Shown: in pieces, positions 3,592 through 57,926 of the stretch | Layout: every line of letters begins with the position of its first letter | Position numbering within the stretch: the first letter of the stretch is position 1 | Assembly (NCBI GenBank): GCA_944325005.1 | Contig: CALUYO010000001.1 | Span: forward strand, 248,001 to 312,000 | Direction: 5' to 3' | Length of the DNA: 64,000 nt | From: Candidatus Gastranaerophilales bacterium | GTDB lineage: Bacteria; Cyanobacteriota; Vampirovibrionia; Gastranaerophilales; Gastranaerophilaceae | Made by a program: the position numbers and the translations under genes | The notes under the pieces: generated by a model | What the model saw: the letters and a program-made list of their open reading frames with translations, nothing else | Told to the model about the DNA's origin: nothing | Databases searched by the model: none

Positions 3592-4461
3592 TTGGTAAGA
3601 GCTAGAATTAACACAAAAGTAAAACCTTCAAAAGCTGATTTGCAGGTTGTTAAACCTGTTAAAACCACAAAATACAGTGATATTGATTTAAATAATTGGA
3701 AAGCGTATGATCATGTTAAAACTGATACGTTGTGGGAATTCCCGACACGTTTAAGGGAAGGTGGACATTCAAACGAATACCACGGGAATTATATTCCGCA
3801 GATTGCACAGCAGCTTTATGAGCGGTTCACCAAGAAAAATGATGTTGTTCTTGATCTTTTTTTCGGTTCCGGAACTTCCGGTATTGAAGCTATAAATATG
3901 GGCAGGCGCTGTATTGGAGTAGAGCTTAAAGAAGAGCTTGCTGAAAGTGTATCCGAAAAATTTACTCCAAAGCAGCTTGTAACAGATGTTAGAATTATTT
4001 GCGCTGACTCGGCTTCAGAAACTGTTAAAGAAAAAGTTCAGGCAAGCCTTGATATTATGCGGGAAGAAAAGGCTCAATTCTTAATCCTTCATCCGCCTTA
4101 TGACGATATTATCAAGTTCTCAGATAAAAAAGAAGATTTGTCTAATTGTGATACAACAGAAGAATTTTATGACCTGTTTGAAAAAGTTGCTAAAAACGGC
4201 TACGATATGCTTGAAAAAGGTCGTTTTGCCGCATTGATTATCGGTGACAGCTATAAAAATTCCGAAGTTCAGCCATTAGGCTTTGAATGTATGGCAAGAA
4301 TGATGAAATTCGGTTTCAGACTTAAAGGTATAATTGTAAAGGATATTCAGGGTAACGAACGTGCCAAAGGCAAAACCGCAAATCTATGGCGTTACAGGGC
4401 GCTTGCAGGCGGATTCTTTATATTTAAACATGAATATGTAATGATCTTTCAAAAAGTGTAA
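3592..4461 (+). CDS. Orphan DNA methyltransferase (N4-cytosine/N6-adenine class)
   Basis: A Rossmann-type SAM-dependent DNA methylase of about 289 residues. The SAM-binding motif DLFFGSGTSG is clear around residue 89, and the catalytic motif IV is LHPPYDD, a variant of the usual (D/N/S)PPY with His in the first place. TTG start at 3592 behind GGGAGAGAAAG; no better Met in frame. No restriction endonuclease or specificity subunit lies beside it, so it is an orphan that could act in regulation or strand marking. It is transcribed divergently from mutL. The recognition sequence cannot be read from the protein. Confidence 0.75.
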   Translation: MVRARINTKVKPSKADLQVVKPVKTTKYSDIDLNNWKAYDHVKTDTLWEFPTRLREGGHSNEYHGNYIPQIAQQLYERFTKKNDVVLDLFFGSGTSGIEAINMGRRCIGVELKEELAESVSEKFTPKQLVTDVRIICADSASETVKEKVQASLDIMREEKAQFLILHPPYDDIIKFSDKKEDLSNCDTTEEFYDLFEKVAKNGYDMLEKGRFAALIIGDSYKNSEVQPLGFECMARMMKFGFRLKGIIVKDIQGNERAKGKTANLWRYRALAGGFFIFKHEYVMIFQKV

Positions 4462-4465
4462 GTCA

Positions 4466-5392
4466 TCATATTATAGTTATTCTGAAAATATTTTTTCCGA
4501 CAGTGGCTTTTGAGAGATTTTTTACAAATTTTGTAAAATCTTTTGCGTATTTCCCGTCTAAAATATTAATTCTTATAACTTTATCTTTATTCTCTTTTAT
4601 GAAATTCAGAGTACCGCCGATTATATCGTCATGAGGAATTTTATGTCCCCATTCAAGAGTTGATGATATTTTATTTCTTAAAAGATAAGTGTAAAGATAC
4701 TCTTTTTTATTAGTCAGTTTCTTTCTTAAAATCGACTGTGACAATTCTTTTTCACTCGGGCTGACAGACTGTTTGTCTAAAAATTTATTTTCTTCTATAT
4801 ACTTCAGAATTCCATATCTTTTTATAATTTCTTTTTCGCTTATGCCGAACAAAGTAGGTTGTTTTAAAAATGCATTTAGGATATCCGAAGTCGAAATATT
4901 TAATTTATTTGAAATTGTATAAACTTTTCTCTTTATTGTTTCAGGTTTTGTAGTAAAAATAGATGCATTATCTAATGCACAATGTAAATATTTCTCTGCG
5001 GAAAGCCCATAATTTTCAAACAATTTTACAGTAGACCTGATATTTTTTTCTATTGTATCCGGGGAACATGAAAATAAGTTCGGGTAATGTAATGCGGATT
5101 TGAGATATTGTTCTGTTGTAAGACCTTCTTTTTTGAATCTTTTTGCAGCTTCCCGAATGTTATATTCCATTGTGTCTGGTTTTTGTACCAGAAGAAAAGG
5201 ATGCTGTTTTGAGAGTTCAAGGCATTTTGTATAATCAAGGCCTTCTTCTGCAAATCTGTCAGCAAGGCCTTGAATATTGGCTATATTTACTTCTGTCAGT
5301 CTGCCTGCATCTATACGTTTTGAGTAATCTTTTCTGAATTTTGCAGTGTTTCCGCTAAATGTAATATTGTTTGTGAATAAAGTTACTTGCAT
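4466..5392 (-). CDS. Helical-repeat protein with mTERF-like repeats
   Basis: Function unknown. 308 residues with at least four degenerate repeats of about 36-39 residues, each of the form P-x-L-F/L, then P-x-T-I/M, then N-I, then G-L-(S/T). Examples are HPFLLVQKPDTM, YPNLFSCSPDTIEKNI and QPTLFGISEKEI. The spacing and the Pro/Leu-Phe pattern recall mTERF solenoid repeats, which are mainly known from eukaryotic organelle nucleic-acid-binding proteins. The N-terminus carries NNITFSGN, a short motif shared with other unknown proteins here. No clear ribosome-binding site precedes the ATG; TACACT lies only 4 nt upstream, so the mRNA may be leaderless. The C-terminal third has no repeats. Confidence 0.6.
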   Translation of the reverse strand: MQVTLFTNNITFSGNTAKFRKDYSKRIDAGRLTEVNIANIQGLADRFAEEGLDYTKCLELSKQHPFLLVQKPDTMEYNIREAAKRFKKEGLTTEQYLKSALHYPNLFSCSPDTIEKNIRSTVKLFENYGLSAEKYLHCALDNASIFTTKPETIKRKVYTISNKLNISTSDILNAFLKQPTLFGISEKEIIKRYGILKYIEENKFLDKQSVSPSEKELSQSILRKKLTNKKEYLYTYLLRNKISSTLEWGHKIPHDDIIGGTLNFIKENKDKVIRINILDGKYAKDFTKFVKNLSKATVGKNIFRITII

Positions 5393-5424: not shown

Positions 5425-6891
5425 CTATATTTTTAAATTTTTTACAACACGCTGCATAAGGTCGTTCCAGCTTTCTTTTTTCCCGAGCCTGAAAAGTTTA
5501 ACACTGTCATACCAGTCACAGTGGGTTAAGTCCATGTGCCATCGCCAATTGTAGTTATAGGGTAAAAGTACAATGCAAGGTTTTCCCATAGCTCCTGCAA
5601 GATGAGCGAGTGATGTATCACTGCATATTACAAGATCAATATTCGCAAGAGCTCCTGCAGTGTATGAAAAATCCTTAAAACTCTCACTTAAATCCGTGAT
5701 GTCATATTTGGATGCCAGTTTTTGAAATTCTTCAGAACCCTCAAATGTTTGAGCAGAATATATTTTTACATTGTCAAGGTCAAAAAGCGGTGCAAATGCT
5801 TCTACATTAATTACTCTGTCTGTTTCGTAGTATGTATTCCCCTGCCATTTGATTGCAATTTTAAATTTGTCGTTGTCAAAAAATTTATCTTTAAAATATT
5901 TGATTTTTTCAGGCGTTGCTTTTAAGTATTTGTCGTGATGAATGAATATATCTTCATTACTAAGCCCGAGCACGTAAGGCAGGCTTAAAAAAGGAATATG
6001 ATAGTCAAAATCCATTTTATCTTCTTCATAGAACAAGTTCATTATTTCAAGTTCGGGGAAGTTATCTTTAAACAGTTGAACTAGGGCTTTTTGAGGTTTT
6101 AAGATTATTTTTTTGCAACGTTTTTGCAATTCCGGAATATATCTTGCAAACATTAGCATATCCCCGAAGCCGGCTTCATAATATGTATACAGAGTTTTAT
6201 CGGAGATATCTTCGCCTTTCCATAGTTGTTTTTGTTTCATTAAGTTCGGGTATGTTACTTCCTGTGAGGTTATTGCTGTTCCGCGGCAGAGACGGTTTTC
6301 AAAGTACTTTGTTCCGGTTTCGTAATCCTTAATTCTGAAATAAGCAAGCGAGAGAAAATAAAGTACTTCCTGATCATCAGGTTTAATTTCAAGGCATTTT
6401 TTGAAATATTCAATTGCTTTTTCGGGTTTGTTAAGAAAAAGATATAAGCTGGCAAGATTATAGCAAGCTTTTTCAGAATGTGGATTAATTTCAAGAGCTT
6501 TCAGGTAAGCCAGTTCAGATTTTTCATATTCTATATTATTCTTATAAGCAAGCGCCAGCAGAAAGTATATTTCAAATCCGCAGTTGAGAGTTGAGCAGGC
6601 CTCTTCAAGGGTTTTAATTTCGGTCTTGTAATCTTTTTTGGCTTCATATACTCTTGCAAGATTTTCATAAAAATAAGCGTCTTTGTTACATGAAATCGCT
6701 TTTTTTATATAATCTTCCGCTAATTTAGTATTCCCTTTTGTAAGGTATATAATACCCAGAAGATTCATAATTTCCGCATTATCGGGCTCTGCTTTCAAAA
6801 TTATTTTATAAGCTTTTTCGGCCTCATCAAGCTGTCCGATTCTGTGCAGTTTAAAAGCAATATTAAAATTTTCTCTATTTGTGTCGTTCAC
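5425..6891 (-). CDS. TPR protein with C-terminal glycosyltransferase-like domain
   Basis: The N-terminal half (about residues 1-210) is built of tetratricopeptide repeats (for example NPHSEKACYNLASLYLFLNK). The C-terminal half resembles the GT9/heptosyltransferase-like domain found in TPR-glycosyltransferases, with DLVICSDTSLAHLAGAMGKP, then LLPYNYNWRWHMD and a WYDSVKLFR block. A role in transferring sugar to protein or glycan is likely, but donor and acceptor are unknown. 488 residues, no signal peptide seen. It lies upstream of the helical-repeat gene in the same direction with a 32-bp gap. Confidence 0.75.
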   Translation of the reverse strand: MNDTNRENFNIAFKLHRIGQLDEAEKAYKIILKAEPDNAEIMNLLGIIYLTKGNTKLAEDYIKKAISCNKDAYFYENLARVYEAKKDYKTEIKTLEEACSTLNCGFEIYFLLALAYKNNIEYEKSELAYLKALEINPHSEKACYNLASLYLFLNKPEKAIEYFKKCLEIKPDDQEVLYFLSLAYFRIKDYETGTKYFENRLCRGTAITSQEVTYPNLMKQKQLWKGEDISDKTLYTYYEAGFGDMLMFARYIPELQKRCKKIILKPQKALVQLFKDNFPELEIMNLFYEEDKMDFDYHIPFLSLPYVLGLSNEDIFIHHDKYLKATPEKIKYFKDKFFDNDKFKIAIKWQGNTYYETDRVINVEAFAPLFDLDNVKIYSAQTFEGSEEFQKLASKYDITDLSESFKDFSYTAGALANIDLVICSDTSLAHLAGAMGKPCIVLLPYNYNWRWHMDLTHCDWYDSVKLFRLGKKESWNDLMQRVVKNLKI

Positions 6892-7215
6892 AAGCTAATT
6901 ATACTTGATAAGTCCCAAAAAGCAAAAAATCTCATGCATTTAAAGGATAAAATATTCTAAAATGTAGTTTATCCTGATAATATACATCAAGACCATGCCT
7001 AAAACATCTAAAGGCATGGCGTAAAAGAGACAATATTACAAAATATTAACCAAACTTGAAGAAATGTTAAATGCGCTGAAATCATGATGAAATCATGGTT
7101 TCAGGGAAAAAATGAAAGCGGAGGAAAGGTTGAAAATAAAAAAGTTGTCCCCGTCTGATGTATAGAGTACAATTAATAATATATTCAACTTCTTGTAGAG
7201 GTAGGATGATTATTT
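6892..7215. other. Intergenic spacer with two hairpins and yggS promoter
   Basis: A gene-free stretch of 324 bp between divergent genes. It holds an 8-bp stem CCATGCCT/AGGCATGG (6993-7019), a second 9-bp stem with one wobble pair (7078-7102), and TTGTCC-17-TACAAT (7145-7173) before yggS. The hairpins have no T run, so I read them as possible leader structures, not terminators. No open frame of note. Confidence 0.5.
7145..7173 (+). promoter_or_regulatory. Promoter of yggS-sepF
   Basis: TTGTCC, 17-bp spacer, TACAAT, then a TAGAGGTAGG ribosome-binding region ahead of ATG 7216. Confidence 0.55.
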
Positions 7216-7881
7216 ATGCAAGATACGGTAAAAAACAATCTTTTACAAATACAGGAAGATATTGCACCTTATAAACCGAATATTATTGCAGTTACAAAGT
7301 ATTTTGACGAAAGTGCTATAATTGAAGCTTATAATGCAGGCTTAAGGGACTTCGCAGAATCAAGAGTAATTGAGGCAGTTAAGAAGATTAACAATCTTCC
7401 GGCGGATGTAAAAAGTAATTCAAAATTTCATTTTATAGGCCACCTTCAAACTAATAAGGTTAAAAAGGCTATAGGAACTTTTGATTACATACATTCCGTG
7501 GATTCATATAAACTTGCAAAAGTTATATCGGATGAAGCTTCTAATGCGGGAAAAATCCAAAACATTCTTCTTCAAGTTAATAATGCTGAAGAGGAACAAA
7601 AGTTCGGTTTTTCCAAAAGTGAAATTTTCGACGTTTTTATCTCAATAAAATCGCTTCCTGGTATAAATATTTCTGGTTTGATGAATATGGCTCCCCTTGG
7701 GGCTTCAGAGGATGAGTTAAACAGACTGTTTGAAGAGATTGCACTTATAAAAAACAGACTGGAAAATAAGTTTAACTATCCGTTAGAGGAGTTGTCTATG
7801 GGAATGAGTCAGGATTATAAAATTGCGGTAAAATACGGTGCAACTATGTTAAGAATAGGTAGAAAATTATTTATAAAGTAA
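7216..7881 (+). CDS. yggS: Pyridoxal phosphate homeostasis protein, YggS family
   Basis: A PLP-binding TIM-barrel protein thought to buffer free PLP in the cytosol. 221 residues, as usual. Motifs include the PLP-lysine segment IIAVTKYF near residue 27, FHFIGHLQTNK, ISGLMNMAPLG and the ending LSMGMSQDYKIAVKYGATMLRIGR, all family hallmarks. It precedes sepF by 19 bp in one operon, an arrangement common in Cyanobacteria and Firmicutes division clusters. Confidence 0.95.
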   Translation: MQDTVKNNLLQIQEDIAPYKPNIIAVTKYFDESAIIEAYNAGLRDFAESRVIEAVKKINNLPADVKSNSKFHFIGHLQTNKVKKAIGTFDYIHSVDSYKLAKVISDEASNAGKIQNILLQVNNAEEEQKFGFSKSEIFDVFISIKSLPGINISGLMNMAPLGASEDELNRLFEEIALIKNRLENKFNYPLEELSMGMSQDYKIAVKYGATMLRIGRKLFIK

Positions 7882-14423: not shown

Positions 14424-15536
14424 ATGACAATCAGACCTGTAACCTCAATTTCAACGGCGAATGCTTATAATGCAGTAAATTTTGAGGGAAAAAAGAAAAA
14501 ACATTCCGGTAAAAGTGAGTATATAATTAATCCCGGGGCTCAAAAATTGGCGATTCCTCTTGCAGCAGCAATTACAATGGCTCCATTAAATGTTATTGAT
14601 GCAAAAGGACTGCATAAAAATAATTCAGATATTGATAATAGAAAAATTGAGTACGTTGATGATATAAGTTCTATTAATACAATATCAAATGAAGGCGGAA
14701 CAATAATTGAATCTAAAAATTTTGTATCTGACAAATATGGCCCTTATAAGGTAAACCTGATTAGTACTGACGGTAATAATAAAACTTTTGAAAAGATTGC
14801 ATTTGAAGCGTATAATGAGTTAGTTAAAAAGAACCTTTCAAATGATGTTAAACAACTTGCCGTATATAATTATCAGGTAGTTTCAGATGATGGCAGTAAG
14901 AGTACTTCTTTTACGCTTAAAAATGTACTTGTTGATTCAGGAATGCAATCTACTCCTTTTACATATAATCAAGATAATATTGTAAATTATATTGAAAAAC
15001 TTATTGATGATCCCAGAAATAATAAGGCTATTGATAAGGTTGTTTATAATAGAACTATAAGACCAAGTGCAGATGGTAATTTTCAAAATGTCGGCGGTAA
15101 AGACATTTTGAAAGATGCTGAACCTTTTAAACCTAACGGTAAGTTAATAGATTCTGATGATATAACAATGGAAAATAAAGTTTTAGGAAAATTGCGCTAT
15201 TATTCATTGAATGGTAATGATAATGATATAGAATTGGTTACTTACCAGAAGAATGGTTATCCGGAGCTGCGTATTTTTAATTTATATACTAATAAACATG
15301 TATTTGAACCTTATTCAGAAGTTCCTTCATCATTTGTAACAGGTATTATGGAATTGTCTGACGGTAATCGAAAGCATTACTATCTGGAAGAACCTGCACT
15401 TGTGTTTGCACTGGCAGATTTAAAGGCTGAAAATCCTGAAAAATTCAAGTACGGTATAATGGGAGAATCAAATACTATAAATTATTTAATAACTCCCAAA
15501 GGTGCAATAATGCCTGTTGCTTCTGAAGAAGAATAA
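14424..15536 (+). CDS. Unknown 370-residue protein with N-terminal VNFEGKKKK motif
   Basis: I do not recognise this protein. ATG 14424 follows TGGAG. The N-terminus has a Ser/Thr/Asn-rich stretch, then VNFEGKKKKHSGK, similar in type to short [IV]-x-F-x-G motifs in other unknown proteins of the window. A weakly hydrophobic segment at about residues 42-60 (KLAIPLAAAITMAPLNVI) could be a membrane or export segment. The rest is mixed polar and acidic without known domain signatures. It lies 109 bp upstream of the large 904-residue unknown in the same direction, so the two may act together. Confidence 0.55.
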   Translation: MTIRPVTSISTANAYNAVNFEGKKKKHSGKSEYIINPGAQKLAIPLAAAITMAPLNVIDAKGLHKNNSDIDNRKIEYVDDISSINTISNEGGTIIESKNFVSDKYGPYKVNLISTDGNNKTFEKIAFEAYNELVKKNLSNDVKQLAVYNYQVVSDDGSKSTSFTLKNVLVDSGMQSTPFTYNQDNIVNYIEKLIDDPRNNKAIDKVVYNRTIRPSADGNFQNVGGKDILKDAEPFKPNGKLIDSDDITMENKVLGKLRYYSLNGNDNDIELVTYQKNGYPELRIFNLYTNKHVFEPYSEVPSSFVTGIMELSDGNRKHYYLEEPALVFALADLKAENPEKFKYGIMGESNTINYLITPKGAIMPVASEEE

Positions 15537-20531: not shown

Positions 20532-20561
20532 AAAAAAGGAGATGTTACAATCTCCTTTTTT
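20532..20561. terminator. Bidirectional hairpin between rpsA and sigma factor gene
   Basis: AAAAAAGGAGAT / ATCTCCTTTTTT with a 6-nt loop. Serves the minus-strand sigma factor gene and can also stop the plus strand. Confidence 0.75.
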
Positions 20562-21558
20562 ATTCTCCAAAATAATTTTTTAAACCGACTGCAAGTTTCT
20601 TATTTTTACAAAGTTTTTTAAGTTTTGAAATTGCTCTGTTTTCGATTTGCCTTATGCGTTCTCTTGAAACTCCATACTGTGAGCCGATTTCATCAAGTGT
20701 TTTTTTATTTCCGTTACTATCAAGGCCATACCGCAAAATCAAAACATCACGTTCTTTAGGGCTTAATTGATTAAGCATTTTTCTTATATCTTCAAATAAA
20801 TTTTCCTGTGATACTCGGCTGTCAGGAGCAATAGAATCTTCATCCACTATAAAATCAGCAATTTTTGAAGAATCTTCAGAAGAGCTTGCCGGTGTTTCCA
20901 TACTTATTGTTGATTGTGCTGATTTTATTATCTGTGTAAGTTTGTTAACCGGCACACCCAGTCGATAGGCGATTTCCTGTTTAGTCGGAGTATGACCGAG
21001 TTCTGTTGTAAGATCAATTGTTGCACGGCGGATTTTGCCCAGAGATTCTATCATGTGGATAGGAAGTCTGATAATTCTTGCTTTATCGGCAATTGCGCGT
21101 GTAATTGACTGTTGAATCCACCATGTTGCATAAGTAGAAAATTTGTAGCCTTTTGTATAGTCAAATCTGCCAGCAGCTTTCATAAGTCCCATATTACCTT
21201 CCTGAATTAAATCAAGAAATGATAAGCCACGGCCTATATATTTTTTAGCAATACTTACAACGAGTCTCAGGTTTGCATTAACAAGCAGGTTTTTTGAAAA
21301 ATCATCGTGTTCATCATAGATTTTTTTTGCTAGTTCCAACTCCTGTTCTGATGATAGGAGAGGTATTTTCCCAATTTGTTGAAGATATATTCTGACGCTG
21401 TCATCAGAGTTTACTGTTGACAGGTTTTCCTGAACTTTAGGATCTTCAACGGTTTCAAGTACATCTTCTTCTTCAGGTAGCTCAAGTTCATGAAAATTTA
21501 CATCTTCATCAGAAATATCATCAGTTAATATTCCGTATTTTTCTAGTTCTTTCTTCAT
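20560..21558 (-). CDS. rpoD: RNA polymerase sigma factor, RpoD/SigA type
   Basis: Sigma-70 family factor recognising -35/-10 promoters. 332 residues. Region 1.2 is [16 protein letters not shown], region 2 includes [27 protein letters not shown] and [13 protein letters not shown], region 3 follows, and region 4.2 is [15 protein letters not shown]. The short acidic N-terminus lacks a long region 1.1, as in many cyanobacterial group 1 and group 2 factors, so it may be primary or a close group 2 paralogue. The many TTGAAA-17-TATAAT promoters here fit this class. Confidence 0.88.
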
Positions 21559-33695: not shown

Positions 33696-33724
33696 TTGAC
33701 AAATAATTTTTTATGGTTTATATT
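33696..33724 (+). promoter_or_regulatory. Promoter of small protein gene 33798
   Basis: TTGACA, 17-bp spacer, TATATT: a near-consensus promoter directly followed by the repeat cluster at 33727. Confidence 0.65.
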
Positions 33725-33726
33725 AA

Positions 33727-33770
33727 AAGTGTTAAATGAAGTGTTAATTAAACACTTAATTAGACACTTA
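33727..33770. promoter_or_regulatory. Candidate operator: repeated AGTGTTAA motifs
   Basis: AAGTGTT/AACACTT inverted repeat (33739-33757) flanked by a direct copy (AAGTGTTAAA) upstream and an inverted copy (GACACTTAAT) downstream. Its place just after the -10 box suits a repressor site. Confidence 0.45.
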
Positions 33771-33797
33771 ATAATAAGCCTCAGAGAGGAGGAAATT

Positions 33798-34085
33798 ATG
33801 ATAACTGTTAATCCCGTAAAATTTAATACTGTAAAACCGATTTCTTTCGGTGAAGGTAATCTTAATAATATAACCCCGAGTGTAGCGATTTTGTCGTTAC
33901 AAAACCCAAATGCGAAAATTAATTTCGAAAATGACCTTAACCGCACTCAGAGAGCGGATATGGTTCAAAATCCGAATATGCTGAACGCTTTAGGCGCTAA
34001 GCTTCGCAAGACTTATAATATACTATTTTCACCTGATTACGACAGAGCAAGCAAAAGTCCTAAACATATTTCATTTTTAGGTTAG
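33798..34085 (+). CDS. Unknown 95-residue protein with ISFGEG motif
   Basis: Not recognised. ATG 33798 follows a strong GAGGAGG. The N-terminus MITVNPVKFNTVKPISFGEGN has the [IV]-x-F-x-G type motif seen in other unknown proteins here. The C-terminal half is basic. It has its own near-consensus promoter and a possible operator, so its expression is probably controlled. No transmembrane helix. Confidence 0.6.
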   Translation: MITVNPVKFNTVKPISFGEGNLNNITPSVAILSLQNPNAKINFENDLNRTQRADMVQNPNMLNALGAKLRKTYNILFSPDYDRASKSPKHISFLG

Positions 34086-56405: not shown

Positions 56406-56591
56406 CAAATATTTCGGATATTAGTAAATACATTAATTCCAAGCATATCAATGGTAAAACAAACAAATCCCGCTGTCAACAAGACAAAGTTTAAAATGTA
56501 TATTAATGTTACGAAATATTTCTGAAATTATTTTTTTTTCTTTATTTTTTTACATTTTGTAATAAGCTTGATGTTAGATATAGGGGTTTTT

Positions 56592-57926
56592 ATGAGAATT
56601 AAAAGTGTTTTGGCAAGTAACGCCGGTGTTCAAACTTTTACTGCTGGGAAAGTAAATGTATATTCTGATTTTGACGGGACATATTTCCCTTCGAGTCATT
56701 CTCGTATTAATAATCTGCAATACGGACATGCTAAATGGCTGAATGAATATTTCTATGATTTCGGAAATTTTTTAAATAATTCAAAGGATGATATCAATTT
56801 TAAAATTACTACAGGCAGAACGTTCGGAGAATTTAAGACAATTGCAAAACTATTGAAATCAAAAGGTTTTTCTATGCCTTTACCGGATGCACTTATTACA
56901 AAAAACGGCTCTGATGAATATTTAAAAGTTAATAGTGATGAAAACTTTTATAAATCGTGCACTTTCCCATTTGATTACAAAAAAGCAAATTTAAAAAAGC
57001 AGGAGGCTATAAAGGACTTAACCGGCTGGAATGGACAAGCTTTGAGGCCTAAAATATATGAAGCATTACGAAAGTTTAATTTTAAAGTTGTAGAATTTGA
57101 TTCGGAACATGGGGTTAATGATTACGGTCGTAAATCTTTGTTTTCTCATACGGGTTATGACAATTTTATGCTTTATGGAGATAATATGCCTCCCAAAAGC
57201 CATTGGCTGGCAGGCTTGAGAAAAGATGGAAGTTTGAAATATTATCTCAGTTTTCCCTATGATATGCTGAATGTTTCAGAGCGTCGCGGAGCTTATGGGG
57301 ATATAAGATATAATATTTCAAAGTATTTAAAAAATTCCGGAGTGAAATTTGTAATGGAAGAATTTTGTGATAAAGACGGTGGTAACCGTCCGGTTATCGT
57401 AATTTCTCCTAAAATTGACGGTAAACCGCTTGATAAACTTTATGATACTAAAGAAGCTGTACGCAAAGCAGTTATTAATAATGATTTTGTAATTGCTGCC
57501 GGTGACGGAAGTAATGATTTTGAGATGCTTAATCCTTTAAATTATATTGATAAGTCAGATTTACATCCGGATTTGCAAAAACAACTGGCCGGCCTTACAG
57601 ATGAAAATATAGATAAAGTTGTTGAAAATCCGCTTATTGTAAGAAAATTAAGAAAACTGCCTTTTATCGGGATAGTTATAAAAGATGATAATAACGGCTT
57701 AGATAAATTATATAAATTATTTGGTAAATACGGAAAAGTAATAGAGGTTGAGCGTGGAAATCTGCCGGCTGGAATTAAAAATGCTATAAAAATGTATTCA
57801 ATGAGCAAACCTGAATTTTTGTCATCGATGAGCCAAAACTTAAAAGTTGCTGTTGGTATTATGCAGGATGAAATATGGAAATATGCAATAAAGCTTTTGC
57901 AGTGGAATAGTATTACAAAATTTTAG
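56592..57926 (+). CDS. HAD-superfamily hydrolase (Cof/sucrose-phosphatase-like)
   Basis: 444 residues from ATG 56592 behind AGGGG. HAD motifs are YSDFDGTYFP (about residue 30), ITTGRTFGE (motif II) and IAAGDGSNDFEML (motif IV), with a large cap between. This is the plan of subfamily IIB phosphatases acting on sugar phosphates; substrate unknown. The N-terminal 25 residues before the fold are extra and include FTAGKVN. No neighbours point to a pathway. Confidence 0.72.
   Translation: MRIKSVLASNAGVQTFTAGKVNVYSDFDGTYFPSSHSRINNLQYGHAKWLNEYFYDFGNFLNNSKDDINFKITTGRTFGEFKTIAKLLKSKGFSMPLPDALITKNGSDEYLKVNSDENFYKSCTFPFDYKKANLKKQEAIKDLTGWNGQALRPKIYEALRKFNFKVVEFDSEHGVNDYGRKSLFSHTGYDNFMLYGDNMPPKSHWLAGLRKDGSLKYYLSFPYDMLNVSERRGAYGDIRYNISKYLKNSGVKFVMEEFCDKDGGNRPVIVISPKIDGKPLDKLYDTKEAVRKAVINNDFVIAAGDGSNDFEMLNPLNYIDKSDLHPDLQKQLAGLTDENIDKVVENPLIVRKLRKLPFIGIVIKDDNNGLDKLYKLFGKYGKVIEVERGNLPAGIKNAIKMYSMSKPEFLSSMSQNLKVAVGIMQDEIWKYAIKLLQWNSITKF

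What the first reader, a model, noticed from the sequence alone, without database searches (positions are those of the whole stretch)
4466..5392. mTERF-like helical repeats in a bacterial protein
Four repeats with P-x-L-F, then P-x-T-I, then G-L-(S/T) spacing resemble mTERF modules, otherwise chiefly organellar and nucleic-acid-binding. Either a convergent solenoid or a related fold; in both cases an unusual bacterial protein.
Basis: inference. Interest (0 to 1): 0.5.

Follow-up and report, generated by a model that had tools for sequence, protein, structure and literature searches.

The report
Bacterial mTERF-like helical repeat protein
A gut bacterium carries a protein built from the same helical repeats as the factors that bind DNA and RNA in mitochondria and chloroplasts, and some of its relatives join a longer stack of these repeats to what looks like part of the machinery that starts gene transcription.

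Summary
Confirmed. The 308-aa ORF at 4466-5392 (-) holds four tandem helical modules (residues 65, 104, 143, 179; spacing 39, 39, 36). Pfam mTERF hits above its curated cut-off. A confident AlphaFold model (pLDDT 89) finds mTERFs and organellar mTERF-fold proteins in its first 19 PDB matches; TAL effectors come next. The organism is a Candidatus Gastranaerophilales. Relatives occur in about 8% of sampled genomes of the phylum, all in one family. The gene is an accessory, fast-evolving neighbour of a conserved DNA methyltransferase gene. Prokaryotic mTERF-like proteins are already published ("pTERF", PMC11417379; two shown to bind DNA), so the kind is known. What I did not find in print: long relatives fuse a degenerate sigma-70-like domain to up to ten repeat units. 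In six long relatives the repeats differ mainly at a few hypervariable positions, as in TAL effectors. Best explanation: a chromosomal, sequence-specific DNA-binding solenoid acting in transcription control. DNA binding by this protein is inferred, not shown.

The parts
4466..5392 (-). mTERF-like repeat protein, 308 aa (whole ORF with stop)
5255..5392 (-). N-terminal region, residues 1-46 (1-11 predicted with low confidence), with an F-x-G-type motif shared by relatives
5351..5365 (-). motif ITFSG, residues 10-14; the loose motif is in the first 75 aa of 34 of 43 family members against 122 of 379 other ORFs; function unknown
4778..5254 (-). mTERF-like solenoid, residues 47-205 (Pfam PF02536 match)
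5084..5200 (-). module 1, residues 65-103 (PFLLVQKPDTM...)
4967..5083 (-). module 2, residues 104-142 (PNLFSCSPDTI...)
4859..4966 (-). module 3, residues 143-178 (ASIFTTKPETI...)
4778..4858 (-). module 4 / cap, residues 179-205 (PTLFGISEKEI...)
4469..4777 (-). C-terminal domain, residues 206-308 (helices, then strand-helix-strand, ending NIFRI); shared by the relatives; the window's last 153 aa have no Pfam hit
3592..4461 (+). convergent neighbour: N6/N4 DNA methyltransferase, present in 33 of 33 genomes of the genus (context, not part of the protein)
5425..6891 (-). upstream neighbour on the same strand, 32 bp away: TPR protein with a glycosyltransferase-9 match; probably co-transcribed (inference)

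Best explanation
It is a bacterial mTERF-fold protein of the published pTERF kind: a basic solenoid of four helix-helix-3/10 modules with its own C-terminal domain. It most likely binds double-stranded DNA at a short preferred sequence through its concave face, with residues flanking each P-x-L-F turn setting the preference, and thereby represses, blocks or tunes transcription of one or a few chromosomal genes. Shown: the modules, the family, the predicted fold, the accessory syntenic locus, and the fast divergence. Inferred: DNA rather than RNA as ligand, the identity of the contact residues, and the role in transcription. Longer relatives carry a sigma-70-like domain in front of the array, which is the main reason to place the family in transcription.
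For: Pfam mTERF 36.2 bits, cut-off 23.1. Model pLDDT 89.2, pTM 0.80; Foldseek ranks 1-19 are all mTERF or organellar proteins of that fold, including DNA-bound MTERF1; VIA Z 9.0-13.2 over 185-246 residues, and the next group is DNA-bound TAL effectors at Z 6.9 or less. Overall pI 9.54. Published pTERF1 and pTERF2, with tandem mTERF motifs, bind DNA; pTERF1, from a ruminant gut metagenome, prefers ACTNNNAGTC with Kd 1.87 nM (PMC11417379, section read). N-terminal domains of 17 long relatives: sigma70-ECF model matches 12 of 17 at E<=0.1, best 3.4e-9; hhalign to 11 sigma factors of the same genome 97.3%, E 2.6e-11 over 168 columns, against 4% for the control (the window-protein family). Hypervariable positions on a fixed scaffold in the six long 39-aa arrays examined.
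Against: No binding data exist for this protein. Several eukaryotic mTERFs act on RNA or ribosomes (MTERF4, mS93, plant mTERFs), and the sequence profile is nearest to those. The window protein itself has no sigma-like domain. Module 3 lacks the proline. Only the mild repeat-region charge is known (24 K+R against 20 D+E); most excess charge lies in the C-terminal domain. The sigma70-ECF score stays below NCBI's cut-off in every full table I saw (31.6 bits at best, cut-off 42.9). The PDB sequence hits also include designed toroids, a warning that idealised helical repeats score against each other.
Confidence: 0.6

Rival explanations
1. It is an RNA- or ribosome-binding mTERF-like protein (as MTERF4 or plant mTERFs), acting on rRNA maturation or mRNA processing rather than on DNA.
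For: Sequence-profile hits are mitoribosomal mS93 and MTERF4; many eukaryotic mTERFs work on RNA (recalled; titles of such papers in the listing).
Against: The published pTERF proteins bind DNA. An accessory gene, full-length in 11 of 33 genomes of the genus, that diverges fast is not expected of a ribosome factor. Relatives carry sigma-like domains.
Confidence: 0.2
2. It is an exported effector: the shared N-terminal F-x-G motif is a sorting signal and the protein acts on nucleic acids of a host or a competing cell, as TAL effectors do.
For: The loose motif is in the first 75 residues of 34 of 43 family members but in the last 75 of only 5, and in 122 of 379 other ORFs. Rapid divergence beside conserved neighbours. 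TALE-like arrays.
Against: The motif has no known function. It also begins unrelated proteins of these genomes. Sigma-like domains fit an intracellular bacterial role. No secretion system was looked for.
Confidence: 0.1
3. Convergence: an idealised helical solenoid that resembles mTERF without common descent and binds something else, for example a protein partner.
For: Designed toroids and designed tandem-repeat proteins also match by sequence.
Against: A curated Pfam cut-off is passed, profiles of separate parts of the family both list mTERFs, and the fold match covers model residues 11-306 with a clear gap to the next group.
Confidence: 0.1

Closest known systems
pTERF (prokaryotic mTERF-like protein; Hu et al. 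2024, PMC11417379)
   Same: Bacterial, metagenome-assembled genomes, tandem mTERF motifs, few repeats (3-11 reported; 4 here), three-helix unit.
   Different: The paper reports that pTERF1 lacks the mTERF proline/heptad features; they are present across this family. Most published ones were assigned to Bacillota, these to Ca. Gastranaerophilales. The word sigma does not occur in the main text. Direct sequence comparison was not possible.
Eukaryotic mTERF family (MTERF1, MTERF3, MTERF4, plant mTERFs; Pfam PF02536)
   Same: Curated profile match, predicted half-doughnut fold over nearly the whole length, P-x-x-hydrophobic spacing.
   Different: Bacterial chromosome gene, regular 36-39 aa tandem units, own C-terminal domain, 8-15% identity in structural superposition with human and mouse mTERFs.
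TAL effectors and BurrH
   Same: Second-nearest fold group (Z about 5-7); in long relatives, a fixed scaffold with hypervariable residues per unit.
   Different: Different repeat length and sequence; no base code known; not the best fold match.
Sigma-70 family factors (for the N-terminal domain of long relatives only)
   Same: Region-2-like and region-4-like segments align to real sigma factors.
   Different: Degenerate, with a gap where much of the part between regions 2 and 4 would be; fused to an mTERF-like array; absent from the window protein.

Membership tests
mTERF (PF02536) | Score above the curated Pfam cut-off | tested here: met
   36.2 against 23.1 bits
mTERF (PF02536) | Half-doughnut solenoid of helix-helix-3/10 modules | tested here: met
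   Predicted model only:
mTERF (PF02536) | Proline at position 8 and hydrophobic residues at 11, 18, 25 of each module (definition as quoted in PMC11417379) | tested here: inconclusive
   Window protein: 1 strict match, as many in 179 of 1000 shuffles; 44 family sequences: 115 against mean 20.8
mTERF (PF02536) | Nucleic-acid binding | not testable with these tools
   No binding assay possible
Organellar mTERF proteins of eukaryotes | Nuclear gene of a eukaryote with an organelle-targeted product | tested here: not met
   Bacterial contig with mutL and sepF neighbours and synteny in 11 genomes
pTERF | Prokaryotic protein with tandem mTERF-like units (3-11) | tested here: met
   Four units at spacing 39, 39, 36
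pTERF | Sequence homology to pTERF1/pTERF2 | not testable with these tools
   Their sequences are in supplements or databases not available here
pTERF | Sequence-specific DNA binding | not testable with these tools
   Reported for pTERF1 and pTERF2; not for this protein
TAL effector-like | Best fold match to TALE repeats and a di-residue code | tested here: inconclusive
   TALEs rank behind the mTERF rows; variable positions examined only in long relatives; no code tested
Sigma-70 (long relatives' N-domain) | Score above the curated NCBIfam or Pfam cut-off | tested here: inconclusive
   L070: Sigma70_r4 29.6 bits over 24.1, but TIGR02937 31.2 under 42.9; hhalign 97.3%

The most novel reading that the evidence does not exclude
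Gastranaerophilales own a class of repeat-addressed transcription factors: TALE-like arrays of mTERF modules, re-specified by a few hypervariable residues per unit, joined to a sigma-like domain that brings RNA polymerase to the addressed site. The short window protein would be the sigma-less form, a roadblock or repressor. This would be a programmable DNA-addressing system native to bacterial transcription initiation.
Probability: 0.25. Interest if true: 0.85.

Novelty: new variant of a known kind. Interest (0 to 1): 0.6.

Why it matters
mTERF modules were regarded as organellar until pTERF was described in 2024. A whole bacterial family with syntenic short forms and long sigma-fused forms gives a natural series for asking how mTERF modules read DNA, whether they are programmable, and where the organellar factors came from. 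None of the phylum genomes sampled outside this one bacterial family had a hit, so these searches give no support for a cyanobacterial origin of plastid mTERFs.

Tried and rejected
Other solenoid families (TPR, PPR and the like) for the window protein: Pfam at E<=10 lists only mTERF. Anti-phage defence protein: no PADLOC match for P0001. Phage or plasmid gene: no tblastn match in 50,697 phage and 72,556 plasmid records for P0001 and for one long relative, L070; no confirmed relative in IMG/VR for A2 or L070; no PHROGs family for P0001; no viral structure at E<=0.001.

Obligate link with the methyltransferase: rejected. The methyltransferase is in 33 of 33 genomes of the genus, with or without the repeat gene. 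One repeat gene of another genus (L075) also lies beside that methyltransferase, but divergently. Conserved partner gene for the relatives outside the genus: not found; the largest neighbour clusters have three members.

Known fold for the C-terminal domain alone: the model is only moderate (pLDDT 75.7) and no PDB match reached E<=0.001, so whether its fold is new stays open. Many Pfam and NCBIfam hits inside the repeat arrays (NikA, PAH_ZNF598, ATP synthase and others) were dismissed as artefacts of repetition: most have no stretch that passes on its own. The TALE-inspired repeat screen PMC5472282 was searched for six terms and held none. Three rows were dropped from the phmmer list before counting the family (L111, L113, L114; 164-166 aa; L111 and L113 begin like secreted proteins, L114 was not read); with duplicates removed, 44 distinct sequences were kept, P0001 included. 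The motif scan also picked up one false unit in L070's N-terminal domain; the identity filter for the codon comparison was meant to leave it out.

Full report
OBSERVATION. The ORF at 4466-5392 minus is 308 aa. Four modules begin at residues 65, 104, 143 and 179, spacing 39, 39, 36. The loose reader motif appears 3 times and never in 1000 shuffles. Pfam at E<=10 returns a single family, mTERF, 36.2 bits against a cut-off of 23.1, residues 47-205.

FOLD. AlphaFold2 with six orthologues (44-74% identical) gives pLDDT 89.2 and pTM 0.80; the middle modules are each a 10-residue helix, a short P-x-L-F helix and a 15-18-residue helix. Foldseek ranks 1-19 in the PDB are human MTERF3, MTERF1 (also with DNA), human and mouse MTERF4, and organellar ribosome proteins; only rank 1 has E<=0.001. 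VIA-align puts 20 such rows at Z 9.0-13.2, rmsd 4.4-7.7 over 185-246 residues, then TAL effectors at Z 6.9 and below. The tool warns that helical repeats can reach such Z by common arrangement. What speaks for a real relation is that the mTERF rows hold every top place, and that sequence profiles agree: profile A2 finds mS93 (E 3.5e-5) and MTERF4 (E 0.018), but also a designed toroid (E 4.9e-4); the C-terminal-half profile A5 finds mS93 and MTERF1 weakly (E about 0.04).

ORGANISM AND DISTRIBUTION. Six public relatives (45-74% identity) are all Candidatus Gastranaerophilales MAGs. With the Pfam model 29 of 386 sampled genomes of the phylum match and 0 of 14 control genomes; with my C-terminal profile 32 of 386. 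Every match lies in one family (f1). Within that family the protein search hit 21 of 146 genomes. No relative was found in plasmid, phage or viral collections. Other phyla could not be sampled, so restriction to this family is not claimed.

LOCUS. In the genus 12 of 33 genomes match; 11 have the full-length protein (the twelfth, G455, has only partial matches to other relatives). All 11, the window among them, lie on the 3' side of the methyltransferase gene, before the TPR or yggS-like gene. The methyltransferase is in 33 of 33. I fetched the site in 18 of the 22 other genomes. In 11 of these, methyltransferase and yggS-like gene are both visible and the repeat gene is absent: 4 have the TPR gene directly, 3 have neither gene, 3 have a pilin-like ORF, 1 has no ORF of 140 aa or more. 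In the other 7 the contig ends or the neighbourhood differs. Against the window, ten orthologues are 41-74% identical, while the methyltransferase is 92-96%, mutL 83-89% and sepF 87-96% where present. So this is an accessory, fast-diverging gene at a fixed chromosomal place. It starts 32 bp after the TPR/glycosyltransferase-9 gene on the same strand, which suggests co-transcription (inference).

FAMILY ARCHITECTURE. From the loci I kept 44 distinct sequences including P0001 (three dropped, see Tried and rejected). Repeat-model hits per protein run from 1 to 12. Two unit lengths occur, about 39 aa (window type) and about 36 aa (read). In the six proteins with at least five 39-aa units, unit positions fall into a fixed scaffold and a few variable positions: relative to the L of LF, amino-acid changes between unit pairs are most frequent at +2 (0.70), -3 (0.62), +10 (0.57), +3 (0.48) and -1 (0.41), against 0.00 at L and 0.07 at F (entropy view). 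This resembles the logic of TAL effectors; it does not show a code.

SIGMA-LIKE DOMAIN. Seventeen relatives, chosen by eye for a long N-terminal region, share an aligned domain (A3). NCBIfam sigma70-ECF matches 12 of 17 at E<=0.1 (best 3.4e-9); Pfam Sigma70_r4 matches 6 of 17 and passes its cut-off in L070 (29.6 against 24.1). LuxR-type GerE also matches 5 of 17, so region 4 alone is not specific. The A3 profile finds RpoD first in the PDB (E 1.4e-5). hhalign against the 11 sigma factors of the window's own genome gives 97.3%, E 2.6e-11, over 168 columns; the control with A2 gives 4%. The window protein has no such domain.

C-TERMINAL DOMAIN. The last ~100 residues are shared by the relatives (A5). 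For the window's C-terminal 153 aa Pfam reports nothing. Alone it folds with moderate confidence and finds no PDB match at E<=0.001. In G455 (L167, L169) stretches ending in this domain recur several times in one protein.

LITERATURE. Hu et al. 2024 (PMC11417379; abstract, the pTERF section and passages read) describe pTERF: prokaryotic tandem mTERF-like proteins from metagenome-assembled genomes, 3-11 units, two of them shown to bind DNA. Their text says the mTERF proline and heptad features are not seen in pTERF1, and the word sigma was not found in it. Searches for mTERF with Melainabacteria (0 papers), with prokaryotic or bacterial mTERF, with sigma factor and tandem repeat and others gave listings in which I saw no other bacterial mTERF report and no sigma fusion. 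The library lacks most subscription papers and all preprints.

MECHANISM. Steps shown: modules, fold prediction, family, locus, sigma-likeness by profile. Steps inferred: DNA as ligand (from pTERF and MTERF1), contact residues (from variability), transcriptional role (from sigma-fused relatives). I put 0.6 on a DNA-binding transcription-control solenoid. The kind is known; the sigma-fused, hypervariable-array branch makes it a new variant.

Noticed in passing
L070:5819-7894, L076:5334-7523, L099:6905-8977, L080:5684-7639, L087:5598-7436 and twelve more (A3): Sigma-70-like N-terminal domains fused to mTERF-like arrays and a shared C-terminal domain.
   Followed up: yes
window 5351-5365; also ORFs 14424-15536, 33696-34085, 56568-57926 and many loci: An N-terminal motif of the F-x-G/A type opens many otherwise unrelated proteins of these genomes; possibly a sorting signal of unknown kind. 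A crude pattern shows no positional enrichment outside the family (27 of 393 in residues 1-40 against 31 of 393 in 41-80).
   Followed up: partly
window 8593, 9436, 10200, 34762, 45249 (+) and 28529, 39703, 58176, 59093 (-): Nine prepilin-type FTLAEVL(I/V)TLGII signals in 64 kb; one pilin-like ORF matches Pfam DUF6613.
   Followed up: no
L167:3437-6481 (-), L169:1096-3552 (-): Proteins of 1014 and 818 aa in which stretches ending in the family's C-terminal domain recur several times.
   Followed up: partly
own genome; one copy at window 20560-21558 (-): Eleven sigma-70 family genes above the curated cut-off in a 2.0 Mb genome, many for its size (inference).
   Followed up: no
L075:5298-6170 (-) and 6338-7711 (+): In another genus a relative lies divergently beside the same methyltransferase, in a different context.
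   Followed up: no
L182:5115-5855, L183:5320-6075, L173:1698-2513: In three genomes without the repeat gene a pilin-like ORF lies at the site beside the methyltransferase.
   Followed up: partly
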